This document shows positions 3,203-22,206 of a stretch of DNA of 64,000 nucleotides, piece after piece. The notes under the pieces were generated by a model. That model was not told where the DNA came from. It ran no database searches and saw nothing but the letters and a program-made list of their open reading frames with translations. Each line of letters begins with the position of its first letter. The stretch's first letter is position 1. This stretch comes from Halichondria panicea (lineage: Eukaryota; Porifera; Demospongiae; Suberitida; Halichondriidae): contig NC_087377.1 of NCBI RefSeq assembly GCF_963675165.1, positions 4,293,042-4,357,041 on the forward strand, in the 5' to 3' direction. The position numbers and the translations under genes are program-made.

Positions 3203-3466
3203 CCGAATCACAATTTCAAAATCAATTAATCATCTGTACTTTGATACCTGTCTATAATAGCTAATAATTATTGTTTCCCGGGCCATTAATTATTCTAATC
3301 TATAGCTAACAAAATAGTGGTGGTGTACAGTGTCACTATTAAATATAGAATGCAACTTGACTATAACAAATTGGCATGCATGATAGAATTCATGATTACC
3401 ATGTTTGGTTATTTTGATAAGAGTCTACTGTAGTATTAGAAGTAATGCAAACTAATTGACAATAAT

Positions 3467-3982
3467 ATGGCTGCATTAATGGAGAGAGAGCAACTACTGA
3501 TCAAGCCAACAGGACACAGCACCACTGTCCCTAACTCCCCTATTGCTAAGCTGATGTACTACTTTCATTGTGTGTGCAGTTGTGTTGCTGATAGCGATGA
3601 CCCCTCTATTCAGCGATTGAGAGCATTCCAAACCAACTACAATTCGCTCTCCAGTGAAGAAGTATCGACACTTCTGACTTTATGCTTAGCTCTCAGCCCC
3701 GACAAGTTGATTAATAGTGTCTTCTTCTTGAATGAAGATATTAATGGAGCAAACAAGTTCTTTGAAGTGAGTGCAGTTTCTACGAAACTTCTTGTTTCAG
3801 AGTCTCTGCTTATTGGAGGGCAGAGGAAGAGAGTGCAAAAAATAATGATGTTCAAGAAAGAGTGGCTAGAGAGGAGCTATAATTATTCAGCCACTGAAGA
3901 GTTTTATACCGTCTACTTCGTGCTGTACCATTTTGTGACCAGATTAGATGTGCATGCCTATAAACACATAATTATAGTGTGA
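3467..3982 (+). CDS. CaaX-array family protein, copy 1 (C-terminus frameshifted)
   Basis: Intronless frame of 171 codons starting MAALMEREQLLIKPTG. It follows its intact relatives at 9002, 18129 and 21727 through KKEWLER. It then departs: DNA reads CTATAATTATTCAGCC where copy 18129 has CTATATTCAGCC, a 4-nt insertion that shifts the frame. The ancestral CaaX end (CCTIL) is still present in the DNA at about 3924-3940 but out of frame, so the predicted product ends ...HAYKHIIIV and should not be prenylated. It could be a soluble variant or an early pseudogene. No known domain recognised; the shared core has a Cys-rich stretch (CVCSCVADSDDPSI) and a conserved LCLALSPDKLINSVFF segment. Confidence 0.6.
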   Translation: MAALMEREQLLIKPTGHSTTVPNSPIAKLMYYFHCVCSCVADSDDPSIQRLRAFQTNYNSLSSEEVSTLLTLCLALSPDKLINSVFFLNEDINGANKFFEVSAVSTKLLVSESLLIGGQRKRVQKIMMFKKEWLERSYNYSATEEFYTVYFVLYHFVTRLDVHAYKHIIIV

Positions 3983-3985
3983 TCA

Positions 3986-4300
3986 TTAGGATGGTGAACA
4001 TCTGTCCACATTGTATAATTATACAATCGAAACTCAACATGACATTGTGTATTGTATATACTACTGCATGCATGATTGACGTACAGTACTCCCAAATTGA
4101 GCATTGTACAATATTGTACAATGTATAACAATTAAAACACACATGGCTTGCATGCATGCATGACTCATAAAACGTATAATTATACAATGCATGAACAGAT
4201 GTCTGCACCATCCTATATTCACCATGCATGTTTAATATAGGGCCGGGTGCACATGTACATGCATATGCGTGGTGAACATCTGTCCATGCATTAATTGTAC
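3986..4300. repeat. foldback repeat built on GGTGAACATCTGTCC
   Basis: AGGATGGTGAACATCTGTCC with TTGTATAATTATACAA at the left recurs inverted about 190 bp on (ATACAATGCATGAACAGATG...CACCATCCT), followed by another forward GGTGAACATCTGTCC. Related copies: 18668-18975; fragments near 11545-11640, 20630-20690, 21026-21050, 22503-22540 and 25070-25205. Probably a MITE that multiplied partly with the CaaX gene duplications. Confidence 0.55.
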
Positions 4301-4382
4301 AGTAAGAGTATAATGATTTCAACTGGTATATATAAGGAAGTGAATACATTTAAGAACACACAAACAGGTATAGATGAATAAA

Positions 4383-5402
4383 CAAATAATCTATGTTTAA
4401 CCATGCTGTATCAGTTTTACGCAGGATTTGTAGAGTTCTATAATTGTCTATAGGCCCTGATAAATTATGCTCGGAATAATAGCATAATAGGTGTCTAAAG
4501 AATAATTGGGAATAATAGGCATCAATGTCCATTTTTGGTAAAGATCATTACATTAAGTTTTGCATAACGATGTTTTCATGACAAAAATGCTAAAGTTGAA
4601 TATTATATGGATCAATTCAAGTCGGCAAGATAACACTGAGAATCTTGTTATTATATCGTGTGTCAGTTGTTGCTGTGTTTATGCATGTCTACGTCAAAAT
4701 TTTGTATAATTAATATGTCGCATTTTTTGGACTTTTTATGAGAATAATCGGATTTTTTATGAGGCACATTTTTTAAGAATTATATAGAATAATGGGTGAA
4801 AAAAACATTGTTCTACTCAGGGGGAAGAGTCGAGATGAAAGTCTGGCAGCCAGGTGACGTCCAAACGGTCAGTTATTCGTTCCACCAACTTGTCTAGTCC
4901 TGCTTGCACTGCTACTATACTACTGCTACTCTTCCTACTACTACTATACTGCTACTCTTCCTAGCTAGTCAAAGGTTTCTTTTTTTCTTTTTTTTTTTTT
5001 AACTACATATGCACAAAGAGACATCAAAGCTTACATCAAAGGACACAGATTTTTAGCCTACTTGACTGATAAGGCCGTTACCTAGACTACAGTTTGTTTG
5101 TCAGGGAGGAGCTCACATACAACTTCATCTAATTCATCATAACAATTCGTTACCGTTGTTGTAATTTCTACAACAGATTGCCAAGGAAAGAGTTAAACTA
5201 TACTCTCACAAGTGAAGATAACACGTGACCCTTTTCACTCTTGCAATTGCATGTTCGTGTTCACAGAAACATTCAAGTATGCCTGAAGCCCTGAACATGA
5301 TAACATTCACATCACTGCATGTGTCGTACATAATTATAGCGAATAATTATAACTCACACAGACTGACAAGCAAAATTAGTAACTATGTTGATTCCAATGC
5401 AG
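4383..5402. other. no gene seen
   Basis: AT-rich. Holds a short TAC/TGCTACTCTTCC-type tandem repeat at about 4910-4968 and a poly-T tract at 4980-5000. It may contain missing 5' exons of the helicase-like gene that follows, but I find no Walker A (GxGKS/T) codon pattern in it. Confidence 0.4.
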
Positions 5403-6575
5403 GTGGCATTTTTTTCTTCCAAGGGATTGTCCTCGGCACTAGTTTCAGGAGAAAATGTGGACATTGAAGTTACAAGATGGTGTGTGCAGAGGTGCGTATC
5501 AGTTAATTTTCTTTACGCCAGAGATGATCATTGGAAACCGAAAGTGGAGAAAATTGCTGGAAGGCGATGTTTATGCTAATCGTTTGAAGGCCTTTGTGAT
5601 TGATGAGGCACATTGTGTGAAGAAATGGTAAGCCACATAACAAATGCACTTGTATATATTATACTCGTAATTATAATCTTAAGTAGGTAAATAATGATAT
5701 AATTATTGTTTTATAGGGGTGAGACTTTTAGGCCTGTCATGGATAGAATTGGTGAAGTGAGAAGCCTATTACCAATAGGTGTGAATGTAATGGCTGTTAC
5801 AGCGACAGCCACAAAAACCATTCGTTACTCTGTCAGCAAGACAATCGGGCTAAAGTCACCCTATGTAATCACAAGATCTCCTTCTAAAAAGAATCTCTTT
5901 TACTGTGTTGGAGTGTTTAATGGAGTTGAAGAAACGTTTCGTCCATTAGCTCGGAAGTTGAAAAATGTGCGTGTTGCCTTCCCAAAAACAATCATTTACG
6001 GTCAGTCGTTCAGTATGTGTGCAAATATATACATTTTTCTTCGGAGAGAGTTAGGCACCAATTTCACAGAGCCTGTTTATGCTCCTGATGTACCCTATTT
6101 CCGCATGGTAGACATGTTTACTAGCGTTACAGATGCTGGGCACAAAACAGAAATTATACAGTTATTTAAGAAAAAAAGCAGCCTGAGAATTGTTATTGCC
6201 ACAATTGCCTTTGGTATGGGGGTAGATTGCGCTGATGTGAGGCAAATAGTTCATGTTGGCCTGCCGGATGACAATAGTTCTTACATTCAAGAAACTGGTC
6301 GGGCTGGCAGAGATGGACATCTGTCATCAGTCACACTACTTCAAGCAACCACTCACCACCCTGTTGATACGGACATTAAAGAATATGCCTCAAACTGTGA
6401 TAAATGCCGACGCGATTTCCTATTCACAGATATGGATAATTACGTTCACAACGATATGGGTAGTAAGTGTGTTTGTTGTGACATTTGTGCCAAGCTATGC
6501 TTTTGTGGTAACTGTGAAACCAATATGATACATTTTACTAAGCTTACTAGATCTACTACTATTTATTTTGATTAA
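5403..6575 (+). pseudogene. RecQ-like DNA helicase, 5'-truncated and frameshifted
   Basis: Exons about 5403-5627 and 5717-6575 (stop TAA), joined in phase (WG across the junction). Helicase motifs in order: VIDEAHC (motif II, DExH), VMAVTATAT (III), KTIIYGQS (IV), IVIATIAFGMGVD (V), QETGRAGRDG (VI). A Cys-rich end follows (CDKCRRDFLF, CVCCDICAKLCFCGNC), typical of the RecQ-like proteins expanded in cnidarians and sponges rather than of cellular BLM/WRN. In the first exon the frame reading SKGLSSALVSGENVD must change to the frame reading GAYQLIFFTPE near 5480, an apparent frameshift. Motif I (Walker A) is not found upstream. Probably a relic of a mobile-element-linked helicase. The 286-codon second exon is fully open, so recent decay or an unrecognised splice remains possible. 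Confidence 0.7.
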
Positions 6576-6661
6576 TTGCGCGTGCAATCGTACTTTTTTT
6601 ATAATGCTTGATGATTGGGAAAAGTCGTATTACGCTTTCTTTGAACTGTAAAAAAATCAAA

Positions 6662-7077
6662 CTAAAATTTATCAGGCAATTTGGTTAAAATCCAGGTCAT
6701 TAGTTCATCTTTAGTTTTGGAATGTAGCACATTCCTAACACGTGGGAACGTTAGGTGCTTTCGGTTATCTTCTACTATAAACCCACGAGACTTCACAAGT
6801 TCCTCGGCTCCAACTTCGATATCTGTTTGTGTATTAGGTTTTGCTTGTCTACTACTTGAATGTGTAATACTGTTATCTTCATCAAACTGATCAAGCAGTG
6901 GTGATATTGTGCCGATTGCCCTCCCAGTTCTTTGAATTGCCTTAGCTATTCTATTAACACCTTGAGCTCGTATGCATGTCTTGGCAATTTTATTTAGATG
7001 TTCCATATGTAAATCACCCGCAATATTCATCCCTGGCTTACCATTCATGTTTACGAACCGACTCCATATTAGCTGTG
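6662..7077 (-). pseudogene. DUF6589-type protein, C-terminal exon
   Basis: Minus-strand open frame behind an acceptor (TTTCAG at about 7078-7084), reading QLIWSRFVNMNGKPG, then NIAGDLHMEHLNKIAK, then QRTGRAIGTI and ending LPDKF. The W-x-R-x-VN...GDLHMEHLN pattern is what I know from the C-terminal part of DUF6589 proteins, which are common, repeat-like genes in non-bilaterian animals and fungi. Its 3' end faces that of the RecQ-like helicase, 86 bp away, so both may come from one mobile element. No upstream exons found before the TATG microsatellite. Confidence 0.55.
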
Positions 7078-7091
7078 CTGAAAGTAATTTT

Positions 7092-7137
7092 TGTATGTAT
7101 GTATGTATGTATGTATGTATGTATGTATGTATGTATT
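7092..7137. repeat. (TATG)n microsatellite
   Basis: About eleven uninterrupted TATG units. It sits directly upstream (on the minus strand) of the DUF6589 fragment. Confidence 0.9.
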
Positions 7138-7865
7138 ATATCAATGTTTCCAGTGAAGAAGTAGTGTTTATAGCTATAGAGTTTGCATGTTTCAGTTTAA
7201 CTGAGAGTGTGCAGTCAATAATAATATTATAATTAATAATTACAGAATATTCACAACCAGCAGTTAAGGCCCAAAAATATGAAAATTGCAGCCTTAACTC
7301 CTCGTTGAGATTGAATTTAATGCATCTATAGGTAGCTAACTAATAATTGAGATGTTTCCAAGTCTATAGATAATGTGATAATGTTACTATATGAGTACTA
7401 GTCAGATCAGTTCCACAACCAAAGCAGTATATGGAGATGGGGTGCGCCATTATTAACGTAGAACAGCACAATAATTAGTGGAGACAGAATCAGAACTGAA
7501 GCCATGTGGACTCTAATTAACACCTGAGCTCTGTGGTCAGGAGCGCGCCAATATTAACAATATTCATAGTTAGTACGCGGTGCAGCAGAACAAATGCTAG
7601 ATAGGGCTGAAACCCGTCCCCCCATTTTTATGGCCGGGGACGGGCACGCCCATCTAGTTTGGGACAGCCAGCACTGCCGGTAACTAGCTGGATCCATGGA
7701 ATAGCGAGTGGCCGTACTTCAGGGTGAGTTTTGTGCAGTAAACATATAGCTAGCATTCCGTGCCAAGCCAAATGGCCGGTATATCGAGGTGGCCGTACTT
7801 CAGGGAGCCGGAATAGCGAGAGTCTACTGTAATTATGTAAGAGCTGCTGGCTGCTTGCATGGCAT
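7138..7865. other. no gene; fragments of a transposon terminus
   Basis: AT-rich. GTGGCCGTACTTCAGGG occurs at about 7709 and again at 7792, the second followed by GGAATAGCGAGAGTCTACTG, which resembles Tc1/pogo-type terminal sequence (CAGTAGACTCTCGCTATTCC read from the other strand). No intact element or frame. Confidence 0.4.
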
Positions 7866-8906
7866 TAGCCTCGATCCCAGGCCGAGTTTTCGCTTTTACA
7901 ACGGTTAGGCGAACGGTTACTAGTTGTCTGCGCATGCGTCAAATTTTCATTGTATTTGTGGTCGGCAAAAATATTTATAATCGAAATTTGTACACAGAAA
8001 ATGCACAGAGTGAGTACACAAAAGATGCACACAGAGAGCTGCTTCACAAGGGCCTGGGGAGTTGCCAGTTGTGCTGCAGCACGATTACAGTGCCTCAGGG
8101 CAACTTCAGGATGATTGAATGCCTTCAAATTATGTTTCAAAAAGATTTAGCAGGCTGCTGGACTTCTCTGATTCTAGGCCCCAACTCGTAATTCTTGAGA
8201 AAACGTAGATTCTCTTGATGCCTCTGTCAGTCTGAGCTACCCAGCAACGCTCGAACGAGCAGGTCATACTCCAGTCCTGTAAGTATAGGACAATAATTAC
8301 AAAGACGGTTAAACCCTTACCTCAAACTGTCCAGTCTCGTCCGTTAGTATAGCCAAGCAGAGCACTGTTGGGATAGCTGGATATTAGCCATTGCTCCTGT
8401 ACAGAGAAATAGACATTCTTAATACGCGTAGATCTATATTAAATTTCTCGTATTAAAGTGTCATTGTCGACGAGCTGATGATGGCAGCACCAAGTTCTCT
8501 AGCTCACACTCTTCACTTGATCCACCATATTAATGATGAAACTATAGTCTACCTAGATCTTGCCAAACATGAACAAGATTTGATAGCACAGGGCCCACAC
8601 AAAAATATCTGACCTTAACAAGCTTGACAAAGCTTTATACCTCTCTATACCTCTTCCCTTGTTGTTCAGTCTTCAGAGTAATGTTTTCTAAGCTTCAGAG
8701 AAGAGAGAAGCTTTAGCTAAGAGCCATTCCAATAATGATAAAACGGAAACTAACTTCTAGTACACGATAGTACACGAATATAAATGTCACGAAAGTGAAC
8801 GAGAATATCCATTTGTCAGAATCTGACGCATGCGCAGACAACTAGTACCAAGCCTAGTTGTTTGCCTAACCGTTATAAGCGAAAACTCGGCCTGGGATCG
8901 AGGCTA
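7866..8906. mobile_element. non-autonomous TIR element, TAGCCTCGAT family, inserted upstream of CaaX copy 2
   Basis: Inverted arms of about 75-80 bp: left 7866-7940 (TAGCCTCGATCCCAGGCCGA, then TTTTCGC...GGTTAGGC...TAGTTGTCTGCGCATGCG), right 8825-8906. The left flank GAGCTGCTGGCTGCTTGCAT is the sequence expected just upstream of CaaX genes (compare 12141 and 18061), so the element split the upstream region. CATGGCAT occurs on both sides and may be the target duplication. The TIR start is shared with the element at 59359-59962. No transposase frame. Confidence 0.65.
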
Positions 8907-8930
8907 CTAGCATCATGGCATGCAGCACTC

Positions 8931-8985
8931 TATAAATTCTGTGTGGACCACACAGTGATTCAGAAAGTGATATATTATAGCTACT
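8931..8985 (+). promoter_or_regulatory. conserved promoter block of CaaX copy 2
   Basis: TATAAATTC immediately followed by TGTGTGGACCACACAGTGA and AAAGTGATA, ending about 20 bp before the ATG. Equivalent blocks precede copies 3, 4, 6 and (more diverged) 5 and 7. The TATA-like box lies about 70 bp upstream of the ATG, consistent with a core promoter and a short 5'UTR. Confidence 0.55.
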
Positions 8986-9001
8986 GTCTTGTAAATTGAC
9001 A

Positions 9002-9511
9002 ATGGCTGCATTTCTGGAGAGAGAGCAGGTGCAGATCAAGGCAACAGGAGGCAGCACCACAGTCCCTAACTCGCCTATTGCTAAGCTGATGTACTACTTT
9101 GAATGTGTGTGCAGTTGTGTTGCTGATAGTGATGACCCCTCTATTAAACGATTGAGAGCGTACAAAACCAACTACAATTCCCTCTCCAGTGCTGAAAAAT
9201 CTGCACTTCTGACTTTATGCTTGGCTCTCAGCCCTGACAAGTTGATGAATAGTGTCTTCTTTTTGAATGAAGATATCAATGGAGCAAATAAGTTCTTTGA
9301 AGTGAGTGCAGTTTCCACAAAACTTCTTGTTTCAGATTCTCTGCTTATTGGAGGACAGAGGAAGAGAGTGCGAAGTATTATGATGTTCAAGAAAGAGTGG
9401 ATAGAGAGGTACTATCTTCAACCATTGAAAAGTTTCGTGGAGTCCTCTCAAGGGTCCAACCGATTAAGACAGCCAGAACAAGATACTTCGAGCTGCTGTA
9501 CCATTTTGTGA
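9002..9511 (+). CDS. CaaX-array family protein, copy 2 (intact, 169 aa)
   Basis: Single-exon frame starting at the ATG in GACAATGGC (A at -3, G at +4) and ending SSCCTIL. The last four residues C-T-I-L form a CaaX box; Leu at the end predicts geranylgeranylation, and the preceding Cys could be palmitoylated, so the protein is probably membrane-anchored. Layout: a charged N-terminus (MAAFLEREQVQIK), TVPNSPIAKLMYYF, a Cys cluster (CVCSCVADSDD), LCLALSPDKLMNSVFF, FFEVSAVSTKLLVSDSLLIGG, QRKRVRSIMMFKKEWIER, then a variable linker (GSNRLRQPEQDT). No transmembrane segment or signal peptide. I do not recognise the family; function unknown. Compared with copies 5 and 7 it has a 10-14 residue longer tail. 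Confidence 0.75.
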   Translation: MAAFLEREQVQIKATGGSTTVPNSPIAKLMYYFECVCSCVADSDDPSIKRLRAYKTNYNSLSSAEKSALLTLCLALSPDKLMNSVFFLNEDINGANKFFEVSAVSTKLLVSDSLLIGGQRKRVRSIMMFKKEWIERYYLQPLKSFVESSQGSNRLRQPEQDTSSCCTIL

Positions 9512-10485
9512 CCTATAGATGTGCCTATAATTTTATACAAACATAACCGATAACAGCCAGAACAAGATACTTTAATTTGCTGCATGCTGTATCATTTTTG
9601 ACATAGATGTACCTAAACACATATAGCTATAACGCTTATATTAACTACTGTCACAGTGTAAAACTTTCTGAGTGTCTTATAATTGTAGCATGCTTCTCAC
9701 AGGACGTGATGATTTTCTTTATATCTGTTGGTGTGTGCTTCACAGAAATTTATGACAACTGAAAAATGGTATAATTTATATAATCATTGCTGCTATAAGA
9801 CTAAGTGTCATCTTCAGTTTGTTCTATCTGCTCCTTGATCTATAGTCATATACGTCAGGATTTAATTAATGAATATGTGTGATACAATGCTAACTCATGA
9901 ACAAATCCTATAGGTAAAAAACAATTAACATACATGCATGCTCATGTGAATGCACTGTAAATATGATGTAAATACATAATACGTATCAACATTTATAATA
10001 TAGAGTGTAAGAAAATGTTGATACTGCATATTAAGTGCGTCGACATTTACTATAGAGTAGTATACAAGTAAATGGATACGCATTACGTAAATAATTATTT
10101 GGCTACGGAAGGTGGCCATCTCATACGTGATCAGAGACGTTGAGGAGAAGATAAACCGATCGGGGGTGAACAAGCTCTGCTTTGACCACACCCACCAGCA
10201 CCTACGTTACAATAGTATTTCTGTCAGAATAAAATGTTATGCGTTTGCAGGCACATGCGCATGCATCATTGTAAGAATGGTAGTCCGTACACGATTTCTT
10301 TCTGGTTCCCTTTCGGTTTAGCTCTGAGTGCCTGGTTCTGGTGTGGATTGCTGGCTTGCTCAGCCTGCTGTACAGATGAGAAGGCTTGCCTTGCCTTGTT
10401 GGCTGCATGACTCAGTAAAACGGTTGGCTGGCTCTATATTGCATGCTGGTGTATTGACCAGGGCGGTATATATATATAGTCACCC
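9512..10485. other. no gene seen
   Basis: AT-rich flank. Contains fragments of the CaaX 3' flank (GCCTATAA...CATAACCGATAACAGCC repeats the 3' end of copy 2) but no reading frame with family similarity. Confidence 0.4.
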
Positions 10486-10556
10486 ATAAATTCTGTGTGG
10501 ACCACAAAGTGAATTAAAATTAAAGTGATAGATATTAACTGCCTTGTAAATTGAAA

Positions 10557-10918
10557 ATGGCTGCATTTCTGGCAACAGGAGGCAGCACCACAGTCCCCTG
10601 TTGCTAAAGCCTAAGCTGATGTACTACTCTGACTGTGTGTGCATGCAGTTGTGTTGCTGATAGCAATGAGCCCTCTATTAAGCGATTGAAAGCGTATGTG
10701 CATGCAAGACCAACTATATACACTTCCCTCCCCAGTGGCGAAAAATCTGACTTTATACGCTTGCATGGCTCTCAGTCCTGACAAGTTGATTAACAGTGTC
10801 TTTTTTTTCTTCTTGAATGTGATGGGTTCTTTGAAGTGAGTGCAATTTCTACAAAACTTCTTGTTTCAGTGTTTCTGCTTATTGCAGGGCAGAGAAAGAG
10901 AGTGCAAAAATTATAATG
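10557..10918 (+). pseudogene. CaaX-array family, copy 3 (decayed)
   Basis: Starts with the family context (TTGAAAATGGCTGCATTTCTGG) and a good upstream block at 10487-10540 (ATAAATTCTGTGTGGACCAC). It then lacks the EREQ segment, carries several indels and stops (CTGTTGCTAAAGCC), and has lost the middle of the gene. Recognisable pieces: AAGCTGATGTACTAC, CTCAGTCCTGACAAGTTG, GGGCAGAGAAAGAGAG. The 3' end is replaced by a degenerate tandem repeat. Not coding. Confidence 0.75.
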
Positions 10919-10937
10919 GTAAAAAAAGAAGACCATG

Positions 10938-11110
10938 CCGGTATTTATAAATGTCCATGAGTATTTATAAACTTGAATTAATGTCCATTAGGTATATGCA
11001 AATACTCATGGACATTTCAAGTATAAATACCCATGGACATTAAACACCCGCATGGGCATTTATAAATACTAATGGACATACATAAAATACCCATGGACAC
11101 AATTCTAATA
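10938..11110. repeat. degenerate tandem repeat around CATGGACATT
   Basis: Four to six imperfect copies, in both orientations, of a unit containing AAATACCCATGGACATT (forward or as AATGTCCATGAGTATTT). It abuts the truncated end of pseudogene copy 3. Confidence 0.55.
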
Positions 11111-12170
11111 AATATAATTATACCCACTAACATTTTTAAATACCTGCATATTATTATACCCTTGTACCATGATGTGCTCTGACACTATAAGGAATATCAA
11201 TTCACTCCAGGGTACAAATCCCATGTACCCTTCTAGGATGTACATGGTTAATTAAATGTGGTCAGCCTAAGGACCCTCTCTTTTAAACAACACTTATTCT
11301 ATACCTTACAACAATTGTGGAAAGCACAAAAATGGTGAAGATCAATTCTTCAGTATCCAATCAGATTATAAATGGGTTGGATAACAGCTTCTAATCAATA
11401 GATGTTCATAGTTACAAGCACTATACCTGTACCATGGTATGGACATCTGTGTGTGTATTGTTTGTAACTAACCTCGTGCGCCCTCGGGAATACATACAAC
11501 TGCCCTCGGTATAGATTCAATACACCCTTAATATCATCCATGGTACAACTATATTACATGTACAACAATTGAAACACATGACTCATAACGTACAATGTAT
11601 GGACAGATATATGTCCATATATCCTGCACTCTACTGTTGTAGTAACTATGAGTTTTCATCTTGTAGGGTACCAAGGGCGTATATAGTAAAGATATACGCC
11701 CGGATTGCATTTATCCCTGTGTTTAGGTCAAGATTATAATTATATACACTCTCAACTTATCTTAAATATAATTAGCCAACAAATAGTGAAGGTGCATGGC
11801 AGGATAAAACCATGAACAGTGCACGGGGGGGGGGGGGGCGGGGAAAGCTTCCCAAACACTTCAGCTTCCCCCCAAACAGTATTAATAGCTCACCCCTAAC
11901 AAATTGCTTTGCTATTAATTACTGTATACTTTTGTCACTCCATACTTACATTACTAACTATAATAATTCATCCCCCCACCCCCCCCAAAACATTTAGATA
12001 GAACCTTGTCAGCATTGTATTTAGCTATTATGGCTTGGGGTTTTGGATCTATAAAGGGCAACTGGACTATAATAATACATGACATCATTGTTACCAACTT
12101 TGGTAAATCTATATATAAAATGATAATGTCATAATAATATTAAGAGCTGCTATAGCTGCTTGCTCTATCA
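11111..12170. other. no gene seen
   Basis: AT-rich spacer with a fragment of the GGTGAACATCTGTCC foldback family near 11545-11640, a poly-G tract at about 11826-11838 and C-rich tracts near 11971-11987. Confidence 0.4.
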
Positions 12171-12221
12171 AAATTCTGTGTGGACCACAAAGTGAAAGTG
12201 ATACTATTTTGCAAATTGACA

Positions 12222-12717
12222 ATGGCTGCCATATTAGAGAGAGCAGCTACTGATCAAGCCAACAGGATACGACACAACTATCCCTAACTCCCCTGTTGCT
12301 AAGCTGATGTACTACTTTCATTGTGTGTGCTGTTGTGTTGCTGATAGCGATGACCCCTCTATTCAGCGATTGAGAGCATACAAAACCAACTACACTTCCC
12401 TCTCCAGTGCCAAAAAATCTGCACTTCTGACTTTATGCTTGGCTCTCAGCCCTGACAAATTGATTAATAGTGTCTTCTTCTTGAATGAAGATATTAATGG
12501 AGTAAACAAGTTCTTTGAAGTGAGTGCAGTTTCTACGAAACTTCTTGTTTCAGAGTCTCTGCTTATTGGAGGACAGAGGAAAAGAGTACCAAAAATTATG
12601 ATGTTCAAAAAAGAGTGGATAGAGAGGTAATTGAAGAGTTTTGTGGAGTCCTCTCAAGGGTCCAACCGATTATTAAGACAGCCAGATACTTCGTGGTGCT
12701 GCTGTACCATTTTGTGA
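12222..12717 (+). pseudogene. CaaX-array family, copy 4 (pseudogene)
   Basis: Well-conserved upstream block (12173-12215) and ATG context. A 2-nt deletion after MAAILER shifts the frame into an early stop. The body from LMYYFHCVC to KKEWIER is open (12307-12630) but ends at once in TAA, because the segment encoding YYLQP is deleted. The downstream DNA still carries the CaaX-coding end (GCTGCTGTACCATTTTGTGA). Confidence 0.75.
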
Positions 12718-14238: not shown

Positions 14239-14370
14239 TGCCTCGGTGCGCATGTGCAAGCAAGGTATACGGTAGTGTGTTTGTGTGTCTGTGTCTGTGT
14301 GTGTCTGTGTGTCTGTGTACGTACGTGTGTGTGTAGACTGCTACAGCTGCTCAAGGGGATGAATTAAGAG
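14239..14370 (+). repeat. TIR-element family R1, 5' end fragment
   Basis: Begins TGCCTCGGTGCGCATGTGCA, then AGGTATACGGTAGTGTGTTT, a TG-rich tract and TAGACTGCTACAGCTGCTCA, as in the longer copies at 28676-29225 and (inverted) 60226-60838. Only the end is present. A further inverted end lies at 24177-24310 and a 3' end at 22545-22605. Confidence 0.65.
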
Positions 14371-14646
14371 TTTCTATAGTAGGGTTTCCACACAAAAATC
14401 TGATCTCTACAAAATGGTGTTTTGAGTGATTGTGCATACAAAGCAACTAAAATAAAGCACGCAGCCAAAAATTCGCATTGAAATACCTTTTCTTTCTTGC
14501 ACAATAGCACCCGTTAACTCTCACCACAACTATGCGCTTGCATGCAATATTTCCACTCTAAAGAAAGCACACTTCAAAGTTAAATTTCAAAACTTTTGTT
14601 GAAGCATAGATAAAGGAATATTGTGCTGCAATTCTACACTTCAAGG

Positions 14647-15497
14647 TACAGGGTTTTGCAGAATTCTTGCAACAGGGCTAAACAGACACAGCAATGACTT
14701 CCATATATGGAAGTCAAGTCAACTGCTGACTTAAAATATTGCGTGTACTATGCAGGGTGTCATACTGCTCATACAGAGGAGGGATATGATTATATCCCTC
14801 CTCTGGCTCCAATCCCCCCCCTAAAATGTGCATTTAAGTACTGAGTTGTATTTGAGTGTCCATAGCGGTAGGGTATCGAAATAACTGTTGACCTTTTTTT
14901 TTATGTTCTGGTGATGTTTCAAATGGTAATGTTTGAAAGTCCCCTCTCTAATTGCAATTGTATGACACTCTGGTATGTGTATAATTATTTGAATGGCTTG
15001 AATTGAAAGTTGTCCTGTGAGCCTAAAAGAGAGCATCACAAGATCAGGAGGATATCCTGACAAGATTTAAGGTGGTGCATGGACGGTGTACCAGGTGGAA
15101 ATGTCGTAAAGTTGATGACAAGACAATTTGCTTCAACTGTGTGCAGAACTGTTGCTCTTTTCAATGACACCCTGATAAGCATTTCCATGGTGCACCACCC
15201 ACCACCTTAATTAAATCTTGTGAATAAGCTGATGCTCTCTTAAGGCTCCAGGACATCTTTCAATTCAAAATACAGATACCTGCACATGTACAATAATAAA
15301 AGTAATAATAAAATTAATAGTAAAAGTCAGCAGTTGACTTCCATATATGGAAGTCATTGCTGTGTCTGCTTAGCCCTGTTACAAGAACTCTGCAAAACCC
15401 TGTACCCAAAATATTATAGTCAGCAGTTGACTTCCATATATGGAAGTCTTTGCAGTGTCTGTTTAGCCCTGTTGCAAGGATTTTGCAAAACCCTGTA
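14647..15497. mobile_element. foldback element with long nested inverted repeats
   Basis: Ends are TACAGGGTTTTGCAGAATTC at the left and GCAAAACCCTGTA at the right. The arm contains the palindrome GACTTCCATATATGGAAGTC, present once at the left and twice at the right (15327-15404 and 15418-15497). An inner arm (GAGCATCACAAGAT...TTTAAGGTGGTGCA) recurs inverted at 15190-15265. A separate near-perfect hairpin, AGAGGAGGGATAT with ATATCCCTCCTCT, lies at 14777-14806. No coding frame. Confidence 0.65.
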
Positions 15498-16212
15498 AGT
15501 AGTTTAGAGCAGAATTGAACAATTGTATTTAGTTGTCAAAGCCTGATGTATTTTTACAACTATACAACCAAAAATTGAAAATGTTGTTTTGATACGTTCT
15601 AGAGTTGACTGCATGCAGGTATTGACCTTAGTACATCAGTAAAATAGCCAATTCAATAGGTAAAATATCTCTTTCCAGGTCAATCGCACACAATCTGGAA
15701 GGAACTTTAGTTTGCATCTGAGCCCAACCCACCAAATTAGCTTGATTTTATCACCGCCCCCAATGAAGTGGCTATGGCTTAGTAGAAATGGGAGTGGGTC
15801 AATGGCTGTGCACAAACTAACCATCGATTTTTATGCCTTGCTGCTGCCTCGATGGAAGTATGTGTGGCCTTTATAAAAGCTGCACTCTGGTCAACTAAGC
15901 TGCTTAGCGCATGTAGACTGTTGTTGCTTGTGTCCACTTGTGAAGTGCCTGTGTACACAAATTAATGGCTTGCTGCTTCCTCTTTGAAAATATTCTATGG
16001 CTACGTCCAGAAGGTCTACCAATGGATACTACTCAGTCCTACATGCTGTATAGCTGGTTTTAAACCTTTTTTTTTTTTTAAGTGTCCTAATTGGAGCAGA
16101 ACTTCAAAGGATAATCGCATTTATGATACTATCCAATCTACCACAGAATCCAATATCATCCAACATTCACAAGTTGATAGCACGCTCCCTCCCAGCTTGT
16201 TATTGTAAGACC
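15498..16212. other. no gene; repeat related to 40575-40800
   Basis: About 15975-16205 shares AAGTGTCCTAATTG, ATCTACCACAGAATCCAATA and GATAGCACGCTCCCTCC with 40670-40800. This is an interspersed repeat without coding potential. The rest shows nothing I can name. Confidence 0.45.
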
Positions 16213-16221
16213 AATAAAGGG

Positions 16222-17412
16222 CAGAGGAGGTTGGACACAAATCATCATGACGCCTTCAGTCATGTGATAATTATAAACCTTTATAGAATTCCTTTGAGGG
16301 TCAAAGGTGAGAATGTAAAAGCTTATCAGAAGCAGGGATAAAGTAAGTGCAAGTAAGAGCTTGGAGAACGCTAAAGAGAAACAGATTAATGGTGCCCTGA
16401 CCTCCTCTGCTCATATAGATCATAATCCTGTTAAACAAAAATTGGAAAAGTGTCAAAAAAATCTAAATACTAGTCTAGATCCATCTTAGTCTCCACTAGC
16501 CCCGGTTAAAATTGGGTCTGGAGAACTTCCTATCAACGAGTTGTGTAAGGCCTTACGTGGCTAATAGTAAATAGTGGTCACAAATAATATTATTCATAGT
16601 TGATGACCACAGTGTGATTACAATAATGTGAAAACCACAGTTCTGCCATAGTTGAGAAACTCTAGAGTCCTGCATGCTCAGTGCTCAAATCGAAATAGAT
16701 CTACCATGCAGGTGTAGGAGAGAAGCTATAGCAACTACTAGAGTCACTAGAAAGATCTAGACTGAGCTGAAACCAGGCAGTTATGTTTTAAGGTTCTCAT
16801 GGATTCAGTTTTCAGAGCAAAAGATGCAAATCAAGTCTCATTAATATTTGCAGTGCTGCCACTTGAATATAGATTGCTGATTTCAGGTATAGATCTAGAT
16901 GTATTATAGTAGGAGACATCCTTGAAGCTACAACTCAGCTCTTGCTTCTGTGCAACTACCCATGGAACTTCTCTCTCTTTCTGTGATCTTTTCTGGGATA
17001 GTCTTACAGCATAAATAAACCATTATTGTCAGTTGCATCTAGCTGGAAACTGTAGCAAGTTGGGCAACAAGAAGGCTGCTTTGCATAACTTCTTTTCCTT
17101 CTTTTTGCCTCCATTGACCGCAGTGGTTAACACGCCGAGAAATCTGTACATAGGAAGTTCACCAGACCCATGTTATCGACCTAGCGTTCAAATAGAAAAC
17201 ATCCGGGGATGGCTGCGCGAGACTAGATCCATCTTGGAATCTTTTCAGCAGTGTAGGGAAGGTGAGAGGGCGGTGGGAATGCTCCTAGACCACTTCTGGC
17301 TACTTGCAGTGTCTCCGCACAGCTTACAAAACAGTGGAGCATAATCGGCCATTTTAATTAGAGCGCACGTGATAAAACCTGACGGTGGATGACGGGTGTC
17401 CAACCTCCTCTG
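16222..17412. mobile_element. MULE-like non-autonomous element with 9-bp target duplication
   Basis: Terminal inverted repeats CAGAGGAGGTTGGACAC (16222) and GTGTCCAACCTCCTCTG (ending 17412), flanked on both sides by the perfect direct repeat AATAAAGGG (16213-16221 and 17413-17421). A 9-bp target duplication is typical of Mutator-like elements. The same 10-bp terminus CAGAGGAGGT is used by the 100-bp palindromic elements at 27032 and 51822. The 103-codon frame inside (17033-17344) shows no transposase features. Confidence 0.75.
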
Positions 17413-17692
17413 AATAAAGGGATATGACTGTAAATGACTGTAGATTGCTAAAAATCAATTTGAGCAAAAGGGGGGTTCCTTTGCTCCGGCCCTTGGATCT
17501 CCCCCTGGATCCGCCACTGACAAGTTAGAATGCACTAGAGTAAGTAACCAATTTTCGCCAGACATCTATAATCGGCGGCTATATTGCAGGTTTGTATACA
17601 GCGGTTTACTATAATTAATCGTTGTATTACACCGGCTCAAAGAATGCTGATGTGTTGAGTGTACTATTATGTGTGGCATTCTCGTTACCTAG

Positions 17693-17831
17693 GAAACACA
17701 AAGATGATCAGTTTGACCACTTCACAGAGGATCAGAAATCTCTCGTCAGGAACGCTATAAGCAAGTCTATTGACTACCTCAAGGAAAATAACCATGGAAA
17801 TACTTTAGGTATTGAAGACTATCTGAACTAA
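17693..17831 (+). pseudogene. orphan copy of the last WSCD-like sulfotransferase exon
   Basis: Behind an intact acceptor (ACCTAG), the 139-bp exon 5 of the gene at 284-3202 is repeated almost unchanged, reading KHKDDQFDHFTEDQKSLVRN and ending GIEDYLN before TAA. One Arg codon is now Lys (LKENN). No other sulfotransferase exon lies upstream, so it is a passenger of the CaaX duplication, not a gene. It could still serve as an alternative 3' exon only if transcription from the 5' gene ran through about 15 kb. Confidence 0.75.
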
Positions 17832-18073
17832 CCGAATCACAATTTCAAAATCAATTAATCATCTGTACTTTGATACCTGTCTATAATAGCTAATAATTAT
17901 TGTTTCCCGGGCCATTAATTATTCTAATCTATAGCTAACAAAATAGTGGTGGTGTACGGTGTCACTATTAAATATAGAATGCAATTTGACTATAACAAAA
18001 TTAATTGGCATGCATGCATGATAGAATTCATGATTACCATGTTTGGTTATCTGATAAGAGAGTTGCTGGCTGC

Positions 18074-18112
18074 TTGCTATCTGTCTGAACAACAAGTGAA
18101 AGTGGTACTGTC
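18074..18112 (+). promoter_or_regulatory. upstream block of CaaX copy 5 (diverged)
   Basis: TCTGTCTGAACAACAAGTGA and AAGTGGTACTGTCTGCAAA correspond to the TCTGTGTGGACCACAAAGTGA block of other copies. The TATA-like box is not preserved here. Confidence 0.4.
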
Positions 18113-18128
18113 TGCAAACTAATTGACA

Positions 18129-18596
18129 ATGGCTGCAATAATGGAGAGAGAGCAGCTACTGATCAAGCCAACAGGGAACACAGTGATTGTCCCTGACTCT
18201 CCTGTTGCTAAGCTGATGTACTACTTTCATTGTGTGTGCAGTTGTGTTGCTGATAGTGATGACCCTTCTATTAAACGATTGAGAGCATTCCAAACCAACT
18301 ACAATTCCCTCTCCAGTGAAGAAGTATCGACACTTTTGGTTTTATGCTTGGCTCTCAGCCCTGACAAGTTGATTAATAGTGTCTTCTTCTTGAATAAAGA
18401 TATCAATGGAAGAAATGAGTTTTTTGAAGTCAGTGCAGTTTCCACAAAACTTCTTGTTTCAGAGTCTCTGCTTATTGGAGGGCAGAGGAAGAGAGTGCAA
18501 AAAATTATGATGTTCAAGAAAGAGTGGTTAGAGAGGAACTATATTCAGCCACTAAAGAGTTTTGTGCCGTCTACTTCGTGCTGTACCATTTTGTGA
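18129..18596 (+). CDS. CaaX-array family protein, copy 5 (intact, 155 aa)
   Basis: Single-exon frame from the ATG in GACAATGGC, starting MAAIMEREQLLIKPTG and ending STSCCTIL. It has all conserved blocks of the family: SPVAKLMYYFHCVCSCVADS, LCLALSPDKLINSVFF, SAVSTKLLVSESLLIGGQRK and FKKEWLERNYIQPLKSF. The CaaX box (C-T-I-L) predicts geranylgeranylation, with a neighbouring Cys. No intron, signal peptide or membrane segment. It lies in segmental copy B beside the orphan sulfotransferase exon. Relative to copy 7 it differs mainly around EEVSTLLVL and NKDINGRNEFF. Function unknown. Confidence 0.75.
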   Translation: MAAIMEREQLLIKPTGNTVIVPDSPVAKLMYYFHCVCSCVADSDDPSIKRLRAFQTNYNSLSSEEVSTLLVLCLALSPDKLINSVFFLNKDINGRNEFFEVSAVSTKLLVSESLLIGGQRKRVQKIMMFKKEWLERNYIQPLKSFVPSTSCCTIL

Positions 18597-18667
18597 CCAG
18601 ATTAGATGTGCATGCCTATATACTAACACATGCATAATTATATAATAGTATAGTTATAGTGTGATCA

Positions 18668-18975
18668 TTACACATTATTAGGATGCATGGTGAACATCTG
18701 TCCACATTGTATAATTATACAATAAGATAGTCTTATGTGTAAATCGAAACTCAACATGACATGATTGTGTACATATACTGCATGCATTGTACAAAAATTA
18801 TTGCACAACTATTAATAATGTACAACAATTGAAACACTTGCATGCATGCATGACTCATATAAATTAATAATTAACGTACAATGCATGAACAGATGTCACC
18901 ATCCTATATTCACCATGTTCAATATAGGGTGCACCTAGCTGTGGTGAACATCTGTCCATACATTGTACAGTAAGA
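18668..18975. repeat. foldback repeat, GGTGAACATCTGTCC family
   Basis: Same arrangement as 3986-4300: forward GGTGAACATCTGTCCACATT, inverted ATGAACAGATGTCACCATCC, then a second forward unit. Confidence 0.55.
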
Positions 18976-19634
18976 GTAATGATTTAAACTGCATGCATTG
19001 TATATAAGGAAATGAATACATTTAAGGAACACACAAACAGGTATATAGATGAATAAACATGTTAGCTCCCTAACAAATTGCATTGCTATAACTGTTTTTT
19101 GCTGCATGTATATGGGCCCCATGCATATACTTAATTCATATCCCCCCAAACAGTAGATTGAACCTTGTCACTATAATTATAATGGTGGCCTGGAGCATTG
19201 TGTCTACTATAATTATGACAATTAACATACAGCAACATAAACTATATAGGAACCATGTTTGGTGCTATAATAGTTGGGTGCAAAGATTTTGTGCATCTAT
19301 AGATCTAGAGAATAATTATGATGGAAGTGTACTTTGCTGGGCTGCTTGCATATACAATAAGTTATAACTATTCATGCATCATGCATGCATGTAAATCTTT
19401 ACATGTAATTGCATGTTTTCCAAGTTTAAGAAATTTGTTCATGGGTTAGCATTGTAGATATAATATGCCACACAATCAGCACACACGTTAAATCCATTAA
19501 TACCTAGATCTACTAGCTATAATTAATAAGACACATCATAAAAATTAATGTTACACTGTAGTTATAAGCGTTATTATAATATAAAATATATAATAAATAT
19601 ATAATAGTATTAGGCACATCTAATAATTATATGG

Positions 19635-20159
19635 TCACAAAATGGTACAGCAGCACCACGAAGTATCTTGTTCTGGCTGTCTTAATCGGTTGGACCCTTG
19701 AGAGGACTCCACGAAACTCTTCAATGGCTGAAGGTAGTACCTCTCTATCCACTCTATCTTGAACTTCATTATTTTTTGCACTCTCTTCCTCTGCCCTCCA
19801 ATAAGCAGAGACTCTGAAACAAGAAGTTTCGTAGAAACTGTGCTCACTTCAAAGAACTTGTTTACTCCATTGATATCTTCATTCAAGAAGAAGACACTAT
19901 TAATCAACTTGTCAGGGCTGAGAGCCAAGCATATAAAGTCAGAAGTGCAGATTCTTCGGCATGCACTGGAGAGGAAAGTGTAGTTGGTCTTGTACGCTCT
20001 CAATCGCTGAATAGAGGGGTCTCATCGCTATCAGCAACACAACAGCACACACAATGAAAGTAGTACATCAGCTTAGCAACAGGGGAGTTAGGGATAGTCA
20101 CTGTTTGTCCTGCATGTTGGCTTGATCTGTAGCTGCTCTCTCTCCAGAAATGCAGCCAT
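19635..20159 (-). pseudogene. CaaX-array family, copy 6 (inverted pseudogene)
   Basis: The only copy on the minus strand. It starts MAAFLEREQLQIKPT but an altered segment gives a stop soon after (NSDYP then stop). A further frame change lies at the ATGAGACCC site, and IC-rich sequence interrupts the TLC segment. The 3' part is open and keeps WCCCTIL at the end, so decay looks recent. The promoter block is very well kept (20170-20217 read on the minus strand: TATAAATTCTGTGTGGACCA). Confidence 0.75.
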
Positions 20160-20164
20160 TGTTT

Positions 20165-20217
20165 AATTTACAAGACAGTATCACTTTCACTTTGTGGTCC
20201 ACACAGAATTTATACAG
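20165..20217 (-). promoter_or_regulatory. promoter block of CaaX copy 6
   Basis: On the minus strand: TATAAATTC, TGTGTGGACCACAAAGTGA, AAGTGATACTGTC, then the ATG. It is nearly identical to the copy 2 and copy 4 blocks although the gene body is broken. Confidence 0.5.
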
Positions 20218-20339
20218 TGCATGCATGCATGCAAGTAGCCAGCAGCTAGCTCTTATATATCACATAATTATTTATATCCTTTCTAAATTCTTGGTAACAA
20301 TGAATTTTATCATGCATGCATGCCAATGTTAATGTATAT

Positions 20340-20695
20340 AGTCCACCTACAGTTGATTTTTAGACCCAATATAATTATACCCACTATATACGTATAACAG
20401 TGATACCACCTTGCAAATGTTACAACAAAACGACGTTTTGTTTTTGACGAACAACAGAAATACTACATATATAAAATGGAACGTAGCCAAATAATAATAA
20501 TGATGTATCAACATTTACTAATAATATTATACTATACTAGAGTTATAAACGTTATATGTGTTTGCATGCAGGCACATCATTGAAATACTTGACTCTTAAT
20601 TAAATATACATATATATACACATATACAATGGACAGATGTTCATGATCACCATTCCATATTCAACATCCTATAGGATATGGTGAACATTAGTCTT
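20340..20695. other. no gene seen
   Basis: AT-rich spacer with a fragment of the foldback family (GGACAGATGTTCATGATCACC). Confidence 0.4.
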
Positions 20696-21025
20696 GAATA
20701 CCAGCCGGTTCTCATTGTAAGCGTGGGCGGGAGAGAACCGTCTGGTGACTCTGGGCATACTTTTCTGTCGTCGGACAGAATGTGGGTAGAGTATATTCAT
20801 TGGAGCCTTACCTGCAAAAGAGTATATTCATTGGAGCATTACCCACAAGAATGTAAGATAGCTTCGAGAATGCAACCGCTCTATACAACACTTCTATTTA
20901 AATTGTGGATTATTATCCACGTGGTTAACAGGATGATTACATTCCTGACTGACAGAGCGTTCTGCCCACAGTCACCAGACAGTTCTCTCCTGCCCACGCT
21001 TACAATGAGAACCGGCTGGTATTCG
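20696..21025. mobile_element. MITE with long TIRs, nested in a foldback repeat
   Basis: Left arm GAATACCAGCCGGTTCTCAT, then TGTAAGCGTGGGCGGGAGAG (20696-20765), matches the right arm 20963-21025 inverted. GGTGAACATTAGTC at the left and GACTAGGTGAACATCTGT at the right suggest insertion into a GGTGAACATCTGTCC repeat. The interior has a direct repeat, AGAGTATATTCATTGGAGC twice. Confidence 0.65.
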
Positions 21026-21345
21026 AGACTAGGTGAACATCTGTACATTAAAAGTCATGTATTTCAACTGCATAATTATTAATAGTACTAAGTGAATACA
21101 ATAATTAAGCAACACATGCACAAACAACTGAGTAGATGAATACAGAAAAGCAATTTTCACATTCTGTTATAGAGGAGTGAGTGGTATATACCTATTTTCC
21201 CCAAAATGCTAAGCATTCAATGGCAGCCATGCAGGGCCTACGTGGTGCATGGGCTAATGAATTATTATTGATATGCATGCATGTGCGTTGAGGGCGGATA
21301 CAATCATGTTTGTATAATTATGTGTATTATTATTCTGGTTACCCA

Positions 21346-21455
21346 AGAAACACAAATTTATATTATCAAGAAATTTCCTGTTAGGAACGCTATATATAAT
21401 TATACACAAATCCGTCGACTACCTCATGCAGGGAGAGTAACCATGCATGGAAAAT
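21346..21455 (+). pseudogene. decayed third copy of the last sulfotransferase exon
   Basis: AGAAACACAAA, TGTTAGGAACGCTATA, GTCGACTACCTC and AACCATGCATGGAAA line up in order with exon 5 of the gene at 284-3202, with insertions and deletions that break the frame. Confidence 0.6.
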
Positions 21456-21672
21456 CACTTTTCATTGTTATTCTTGTTCTTATTTAGCCAACGAAAAGGT
21501 GGTAGTGTCACAGTGACTATAATTATTATATGGTTGCCTGGGGTATTATTATTAGGGTACAAAATGCATATCATTGGCATGAGATCGAATTCATTGTTTA
21601 CCATGTTTGGTAATCTATAGATAACCATGCATGTGATAAGACATTTTGTGTAGCTGCTGCTTCCATTATTCT

Positions 21673-21720
21673 GTCTGGACAACAAAGTGAAAGTGATAGA
21701 ATTATTATAATTATAGTGTC
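21673..21720 (+). promoter_or_regulatory. upstream block of CaaX copy 7
   Basis: TTCTGTCTGGACAACAAAG, then TGAAAGTGATAGAATT, about 15 bp before the ATG; similar to blocks of copies 2, 4 and 6. Confidence 0.45.
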
Positions 21721-21726
21721 TGAAGA

Positions 21727-22206
21727 ATGGCTGCAATAATGGAGAGAGAGCAGCTACAGATCAAGCCAACAGGATGCAACACAACTATCCCTGACTCCCC
21801 TATTGCTAAGCTGATGTACTATTTTGATTGTGTGTGCTGTTGTGTTGCTGATAGCAATGACCCTTCTATTAAGCGATTGAGAGCGTACAAGACCAACTAC
21901 AATTCGCTCTCCAGTGCAGAAGTATCTGCACTTTTGACTTTATGCTTGGCTCTCAGCCCTGACAAGTTGATTAATAGTGTCTTCTTCTTGAATGAAGATA
22001 TTACTAGAGGAAACAAGTTTTTTGAAGTCAGCGCAGTTTCTACGAAACTTCTTGTTTCAGAGTCGCTGCTTATTGGAGGGCAGAGGAAGAGAGTGCAAAA
22101 AATTATGATGTTCAAGAAAGAGTGGTTAGAGAGGAACTATATTCAGCCACTGAAGAGTTTCGTGCAGTCCTCTCAACAAAATACTTCATGCTGTACCATT
22201 TTGTGA
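21727..22206 (+). CDS. CaaX-array family protein, copy 7 (intact, 159 aa)
   Basis: Single-exon frame starting MAAIMEREQLQIKPTG and ending QNTSCCTIL. Family blocks: SPIAKLMYYFDCVCCCVADS (five Cys within a few residues), LCLALSPDKLINSVFF, EDITRGNKFFEVSAVSTK, LIGGQRKRVQKIMMFKKEW and LERNYIQPLKSFV. The C-T-I-L end predicts geranylgeranylation and membrane attachment. A decayed sulfotransferase exon lies just upstream, as in copies 1 and 5, showing that it came from the same duplication unit. Function unknown. Confidence 0.75.
   Translation: MAAIMEREQLQIKPTGCNTTIPDSPIAKLMYYFDCVCCCVADSNDPSIKRLRAYKTNYNSLSSAEVSALLTLCLALSPDKLINSVFFLNEDITRGNKFFEVSAVSTKLLVSESLLIGGQRKRVQKIMMFKKEWLERNYIQPLKSFVQSSQQNTSCCTIL

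What the first reader, a model, noticed from the sequence alone, without database searches (positions are those of the whole stretch)
3467..22206. Tandem array of an uncharacterised CaaX-tailed gene family
Seven copies of one intronless gene lie within 19 kb: three intact, one with a changed C-terminus, three pseudogenes, one of them inverted. Intact products are 155-169 aa, have a Cys-rich core, no membrane segment, and end CCTIL, a CaaX box predicted to be geranylgeranylated, with a neighbouring Cys for possible palmitoylation. That suggests a membrane-attached signalling or defence factor under birth-and-death evolution. I recognise no domain. Motifs and copies are seen in the sequence; lipidation is inferred from the CaaX rule.
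Basis: partly seen in the sequence, partly recalled or inferred. Interest (0 to 1): 0.85.

Follow-up and report, generated by a model that had tools for sequence, protein, structure and literature searches.

The report
Sponge cluster of lipid-anchor gene copies
A stretch of what looks like a sponge chromosome carries seven copies, some intact and some broken, of a small gene with no relatives found so far, whose protein probably gets a fat-like anchor on its tail that ties it to membranes; what it does there is still unknown.

Summary
Seven copies of one gene without introns in its coding region lie at 3467-22206: three intact (9002, 18129, 21727; 169, 155, 159 aa), one with its tail lost to a frameshift (3467), two pseudogenes (12222; 20159, inverted) and one relic (10557). 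Genome searches found one further copy, 2.2 Mb away: intact, 168 aa, 55-58% identical, with saturated synonymous divergence, ending CIIL where the window copies end CTIL. A CaaX box is thus kept across an old split. Both tetrapeptides are published as fully geranylgeranylated by human GGTase-I in yeast, and this genome has a clear GGTase-I beta exon. Pairwise dN/dS among the four open window copies is 0.22-0.52, so they were constrained. No convincing match in Pfam, NCBIfam, PHROGs or PDB sequences, and no relative in the viral, phage or prokaryote searches; animal proteins could not be searched, and two fold predictions were too poor to use. A silicatein-like exon suggests a sponge. Best reading: a small cytosolic protein tethered to membranes by geranylgeranyl, in a tandem birth-and-death family. 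A signalling or defence role is untested. A side observation, an excess of palindromic octamers, with short insertions that make them, may be the more unusual one.

The parts
3467..3982 (+). copy 1: core intact (3467-3880), 4-nt insertion at about 3881-3884 shifts the frame, new tail of about 33 residues, CaaX lost; its DNA relic is out of frame at 3921-3938
9002..9511 (+). copy 2: intact, 169 aa, ends SSCCTIL
10557..10931 (+). copy 3: degraded relic with many indels, 3' end lost
12222..12717 (+). copy 4: pseudogene (2-nt deletion near the start, premature stops), tail DNA for CCTIL still present
18129..18596 (+). copy 5: intact, 155 aa, ends TSCCTIL; shares a longer duplicated unit with copy 1
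19635..20159 (-). copy 6: inverted pseudogene with several 2- and 4-nt insertions, tail DNA for CCTIL still present
21727..22206 (+). copy 7: intact, 159 aa, ends TSCCTIL
3032..3466 (+). upstream block shared with 17660-18128 (95% over positions 1-392 of the 434-base query); with the genes and 3' flanks it makes a duplicated unit of about 1.4 kb (3032-4384 / 17660-19059, 82%)
17660..19059 (+). second copy of the duplicated unit

Best explanation
The cluster is a tandem, expanded family of genes with single-exon coding regions for a small (155-169 aa) soluble protein: a conserved core of about 140 residues, a linker of variable length and composition, and a C-terminal CaaX box ending in Leu. 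GGTase-I geranylgeranylates the CaaX cysteine, the usual Rce1/ICMT steps follow (general knowledge), and the protein is held on the cytosolic face of membranes, where I think the core acts as an adaptor or scaffold. The array arose by DNA-level tandem and inverted duplication, perhaps with some exchange between copies; some copies stayed under purifying selection while others decay. Shown: the copies, the duplication, the conserved CaaX box, the constraint, a GGTase-I beta exon in the genome. Inferred from published work on the same tetrapeptides: geranylgeranylation. Inferred only: membrane residence and an adaptor role.
For: Seven copies in 19 kb and one paralogue elsewhere. The paralogue is intact, has a single-exon coding region and ends CIIL; C, I and L of the box are kept although synonymous sites are saturated and the linker differs. 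dN/dS: 6 of 6 pairs among the four open window copies are below 1 (0.22-0.52; Fisher p 0.023 to 1.6e-5, uncorrected); in 4 of 4 pairs with the paralogue dS is beyond correction with dN 0.35-0.45. GGTase-I beta exon on C7, E 1.6e-38 to the type-1 beta subunit against 5.7e-9 to type 2. CTIL and CIIL are among the sequences fully shifted by human GGTase-I in yeast (PMC11152559, passages); CTIL is necessary and sufficient for geranylgeranylation of OAS1 (PMC8357416, passages). Shared flanks show DNA-level duplication.
Against: No transcript or protein data. No fold: two models with mean pLDDT 42.6 and 48.6; the second had no PDB match at E <= 0.001. In the core alone the 9002/18129 pair has dN/dS 0.69. 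Copy 1 lost its CaaX yet stays open, so either the tail is dispensable in that copy or it is a young pseudogene. The same yeast paper tested CTIL and CIIL with human farnesyltransferase too, so farnesylation is not excluded. A CaaX box alone may not set the location: OAS1 common part plus CTIL looked cytosolic and nuclear. The hydrophobic stretch at residue 68 of the paralogue leaves another membrane contact possible.
Confidence: 0.7

Rival explanations
1. The family is an innate-defence effector that CaaX tethering brings to membranes where pathogens replicate, as with OAS1 p46; tandem birth-and-death follows from an arms race.
For: Tandem array with pseudogenes and some signs of exchange between copies; the same CTIL tail as OAS1 p46; residues 1-20 are the most variable part of the core, mean pN 0.163 against 0.012-0.078 in the other 20-residue blocks.
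Against: No defence domain found (PADLOC was not run). Pairwise dN/dS is below 1; even in residues 1-20 pN (0.163) is below pS (0.229). No immune gene was recognised nearby, but the look was partial: 20 of the 155 open stretches were scanned against Pfam, plus the proteins; matches were a mobile element and one sub-threshold SDA1 match.
Confidence: 0.17
2. Only the distant paralogue is a working gene; the window array is a set of decaying copies, some still open by chance.
For: Four of seven copies are broken; the open copies are fairly young (dS about 0.2-0.3).
Against: Three copies keep full frames and CaaX boxes, and dN/dS is below 1 in 3 of 3 pairs among them (0.29-0.52; Fisher p 0.023, 5.2e-4, 1.6e-5, uncorrected).
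Confidence: 0.1
3. The family derives from a mobile element or virus, and its copies spread as cargo.
For: A helicase/DUF6589 mobile element and a high-copy repeat lie inside the array.
Against: Only eight copies were found in 131 Mb, seven of them in the array; no relative in the pattern-based scans of viral and prokaryote contigs or in phages; the mobile element and the repeat occur in many other places without the gene being found there.
Confidence: 0.03

Closest known systems
OAS1 p46 (prenylated antiviral RNA sensor)
   Same: C-terminal CTIL, the same tetrapeptide, shown to be geranylgeranylated (passages)
   Different: No convincing Pfam domain is found here; these proteins are much smaller (recalled size of OAS1)
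Ras/Rho/Rap small GTPases (RhoB-like CC-a-a-L tails; tail detail recalled)
   Same: Linker followed by a CaaX box ending in Leu, with a neighbouring Cys in the window copies
   Different: No P-loop GxxxxGK[ST] in 6 of 6 sequences and no Ras-type Pfam match
Heterotrimeric G-protein gamma subunits
   Same: Small proteins with CaaX ending in Leu (recalled)
   Different: No G-gamma Pfam match; about twice as long (recalled size)
Guanylate-binding proteins
   Same: CaaX-tailed members, often in tandem clusters (recalled)
   Different: No GTPase-domain match; only 155-169 aa
Taxonomically restricted Cys-rich protein family of reef corals (PMC2652719, search listing only)
   Same: Lineage-restricted family in an early-branching animal
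   Different: Secreted, by my recall; here no hydrophobic N-terminus is seen and the tail is a CaaX box

Membership tests
CaaX proteins (GGTase-I substrates) | C-terminal C-a-a-[L/M/I], no residues after X | tested here: met
   CTIL in 3 of 3 intact window copies, CIIL in the paralogue, each directly before the stop; not in copy 1, which is frameshifted
CaaX proteins (GGTase-I substrates) | covalent geranylgeranyl on the Cys | not testable with these tools
   inferred from published data for CTIL and CIIL and a GGTase-I beta exon in the genome
Ras/Rho small GTPases | P-loop GxxxxGK[ST] and Ras domain | tested here: not met
   0 of 6 sequences; no Ras match up to E 1 in Pfam
G-protein gamma subunits | G-gamma domain | tested here: not met
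   no such match up to E 1 among 6 sequences scanned against Pfam
OAS1 p46 | nucleotidyltransferase/OAS domain | tested here: not met
   no such match in Pfam
Guanylate-binding proteins | GBP GTPase domain | tested here: not met
   no such match in Pfam
any family of solved fold | sequence or structural match to the PDB | tested here: inconclusive
   no sequence match (0 up to E 10; best E 1.7); the model is too poor for its fold search to count

The most novel reading that the evidence does not exclude
A sponge-restricted family of geranylgeranylated proteins with an undescribed fold, kept by selection as one old gene plus a fast-turning tandem array: a new class of membrane-tethered adaptor, whose tail-less copy 1 is a natural soluble variant.
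Probability: 0.2. Interest if true: 0.6.

Novelty: new member of a known kind. Interest (0 to 1): 0.4.

Why it matters
CaaX-tailed families outside the known GTPases and enzymes are few (general knowledge), and a tandem family with one divergent paralogue gives a clean set for asking what a prenyl tail adds to a protein of unknown fold. For sponge biology it adds a constrained gene family without a known domain. If the core proves to be a new fold or an immune adaptor it would matter more; nothing here shows that yet.

Tried and rejected
Family libraries: Pfam for the copies (best E 0.15), NCBIfam (best E 0.0058 to a hypothetical-protein model, in 2 of 6 sequences), PHROGs (best E 0.072, in 1 of 6): nothing convincing. 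PADLOC was not run. PDB sequences: 0 up to E 10 and two at E 1.7 and 2.5. Viral contigs: 22 stretches matched one of two peptide patterns, 0 confirmed; prokaryote genomes: 167 stretches, 0 confirmed; phages by tblastn: none. The pattern scans would miss distant relatives.

Structure: two predictions from window proteins, mean pLDDT 42.6 and 48.6. Foldseek on the second gave 100 matches up to E 10 (50 shown) and 0 at E <= 0.001. Several of the targets shown are winged-helix proteins by their titles or my recall, as the predicted order helix-helix-helix-strand-strand would suggest, but all have E of 1 or more, so I give this no weight. The viral fold library and pdb_via were not used.

Gene conversion: longest run of identical variable sites, 15 pairs of six window copies, 2000 shuffles: 18129/21727 p 0.002, 3467/20159 p 0.033, 12222/20159 p 0.046, the other 12 pairs above 0.05. 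Only the first survives correction for 15 tests. The tree of the copies is poorly supported (bootstrap 45-86) and puts the long-branched paralogue inside the window copies, which I take as an artefact.

Literature: searches on CaaX/tandem/sponge/geranylgeranyl, prenylation/Amphimedon/CaaX and sponge lineage-specific tandem intronless families listed nothing that I recognise as this family; I saw listings of part of the matches in one open-access library, so this does not show that it is unpublished. Searches were for the organism; no species was identified. (palindromes; RecQ/DUF6589 elements) were read as listings only.
Full report
What is there. The window lies at 4293042-4357041 of an 18.1-Mb contig in a 131-Mb genome of 39 contigs. 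ORF listing and tblastn of the copies against the window confirm seven copies of one gene: intact at 9002-9511 (169 aa), 18129-18596 (155 aa) and 21727-22206 (159 aa); a frameshifted copy at 3467-3982; pseudogenes at 12222-12717 and, inverted, 20159-19635; a relic at 10557-10931. Searching the whole genome with copy 9002 (10 places) and with the paralogue (9 places) returned these seven, two of them or one of them in two pieces, and one more gene, C1:6531664-6532170 minus, about 2.2 Mb away. In both searches all first-look candidates were scored (10 of 10, 9 of 9); the tool warns that counts are lower bounds.

The paralogue. It is one open reading frame of 168 aa, starts MAA like the window copies, has no intron in the coding region, is 55-58% identical to the three intact copies and ends CIIL. 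Synonymous divergence to 4 of 4 window copies tested is beyond Jukes-Cantor correction, while dN is 0.35-0.45. The stretch from the PLK motif to the end is 15, 19, 29 and 29 residues in 18129, 21727, 9002 and the paralogue; the paralogue's linker is Arg- and Pro-rich and aligns poorly with the others, yet each ends C-[T/I]-I-L. The Cys before the CaaX Cys is present only in the window copies. So the CaaX box is a conserved feature of the family and the second Cys is not.

Copy 1. Its 'changed C-terminus' is a frameshift: a 4-nt insertion at about 3881-3884 shifts the frame, and the DNA that encodes CCTIL in the other copies is still present at 3921-3938, out of frame.

Selection. Nei-Gojobori counts (copy 3467 by its first 138 codons, stop codons dropped, copies 12222, 20159 and 10557 not included): for the six pairs among 3467, 9002, 18129 and 21727, dS 0.198-0.312, dN 0.054-0.127, ratio 0.22-0.52, Fisher p 0.023 to 1.6e-5, uncorrected and on rounded counts. 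Restricted to the core, 9002/18129 rises to 0.69. By 20-residue blocks, mean pN is highest in residues 1-20 (0.163, with pS 0.229) and lowest in 101-120 (0.012, with pS 0.206); in 21-40 both are low (0.073 and 0.094).

How the array grew. Copies 3467 and 18129 share a unit of about 1.4 kb (82% overall). Its upstream part is 94-100% identical in 60-base windows from -420 to -120 before the start, the last 120 bases before the start only 68-78%, and the coding part 83-95%. The upstream block was found at these two places plus one 80% match over 160 bases on C3. A flank more alike than the gene, and runs of shared variable sites, suggest exchange between copies; the evidence is modest. I saw no sign of retroposition: flanks are shared at the DNA level.

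Does the cell have the enzyme? Pfam Prenyltrans matches fall on C7, C9 and C10 (11 pieces). The C7 exon is closest to GGTase-I beta in the PDB (E 1.6e-38 and 2.1e-38, against 5.7e-9 for type 2 and 9.1e-9 for the best farnesyltransferase). I did not classify the C9 and C10 pieces. In passages of PMC11152559, CIIL and CTIL are among the four sequences of a 22-member set that were fully shifted by human GGTase-I in yeast; the same paper also tested them with human farnesyltransferase and found the shift still present without it, so GGTase-I is the likelier but not the only possible enzyme. In passages of PMC8357416, CTIL is necessary and sufficient for geranylgeranylation of OAS1, but the common OAS1 part plus CTIL appeared cytosolic and nuclear, so a CaaX box need not decide the destination.

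What the core is. I do not know. The family libraries, PDB sequences and the viral, phage and prokaryote searches gave no convincing relative, and two structure predictions from 5 and 6 closely similar sequences were too poor to use. No animal protein collection was available, so relatives in other animals cannot be excluded; this is the main gap.

Organism. A short exon on C2 is closest to silicatein alpha among PDB sequences (E 9e-12; the next, cathepsin S, 1.4e-8) and carries Ser where most of the other C1-peptidase stretches carry the catalytic Cys. Silicateins are, by my recall, sponge proteins, so a sponge is likely but not proven. The sizes of 117-292 Mb in the 10 sponge genome notes listed (starts of abstracts) do not speak against it.

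Verdict. The constrained, CaaX-tailed family is real; the signalling or defence role is a guess. I file it as a new, unnamed member of the broad kind 'CaaX-tethered proteins'.

Noticed in passing
whole window; also L027-L030 and L004-L008: Palindromic octamers exceed a second-order Markov expectation: ATAATTAT 107 against 4.5, CATGCATG 42 against 2.3, TGCATGCA 45 against 3.2 in the window. All 8-nt palindromes without dinucleotide repeats: 565 against 270.6 in the window, 330 against 166.1 in L027-L030, 121 against 64.8 in L004-L008; the mirror-repeat control also exceeds expectation (299 against 243.5 in the window, 240 against 154.0 in L027-L030), so part of the excess is not specific to palindromes.
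   Followed up: partly
3881-3884, 10557-10931, 19635-20159, 3936-4384 / 18593-19059; L006: Short insertions, often of 4 nt, that create such palindromes (TGCATGCA, TATAATTATT, AGCTAGCT) recur in decaying copies and flanks, as if a repair process or element excision adds self-complementary tetramers; one of them took the CaaX box of copy 1 out of frame. Not general: in 6 copies of the 407-bp repeat, 1 of 4 minority insertions made a new palindrome.
   Followed up: partly
5700-7140: Helicase_C stretch (E 7.9e-12; RecQ-like by my reading) and, on the other strand, DUF6589 (E 2e-9): part of a mobile element, 99% identical over 1385 bases to copies on C3 and C1, 66 matched pieces in the genome, the window's own included. 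It sits between copies 1 and 2.
   Followed up: partly
8500-8906: High-copy repeat just upstream of copy 2: the 40 scored places of 931 candidates, the window's own included, are 87-100% identical over positions 1-407. Its true ends were not determined.
   Followed up: partly
L027 (C1:6520000-6529999): Near the paralogue lie two oppositely oriented sets of exons with Rieske domains (E 1.2e-10 to 8.1e-7 in 4 of 4 stretches scanned), which look like neverland-type sterol desaturases (name recalled).
   Followed up: partly
14645-15497: Local inverted and direct repeats of about 70-100 nt at 86-96% identity.
   Followed up: no
51811-52290: Open stretch on the minus strand with a sub-threshold match to the SDA1 domain (E 2.6e-5, 25.2 bits against a cut-off of 27.8); possibly only an acidic low-complexity match.
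   Followed up: no
C8:493345-521186: Seven Peptidase_C1 stretches in tandem, each in an open frame of 422-502 residues without stops; one has Ser at the catalytic position of the GSCWAF motif (L051).
   Followed up: no
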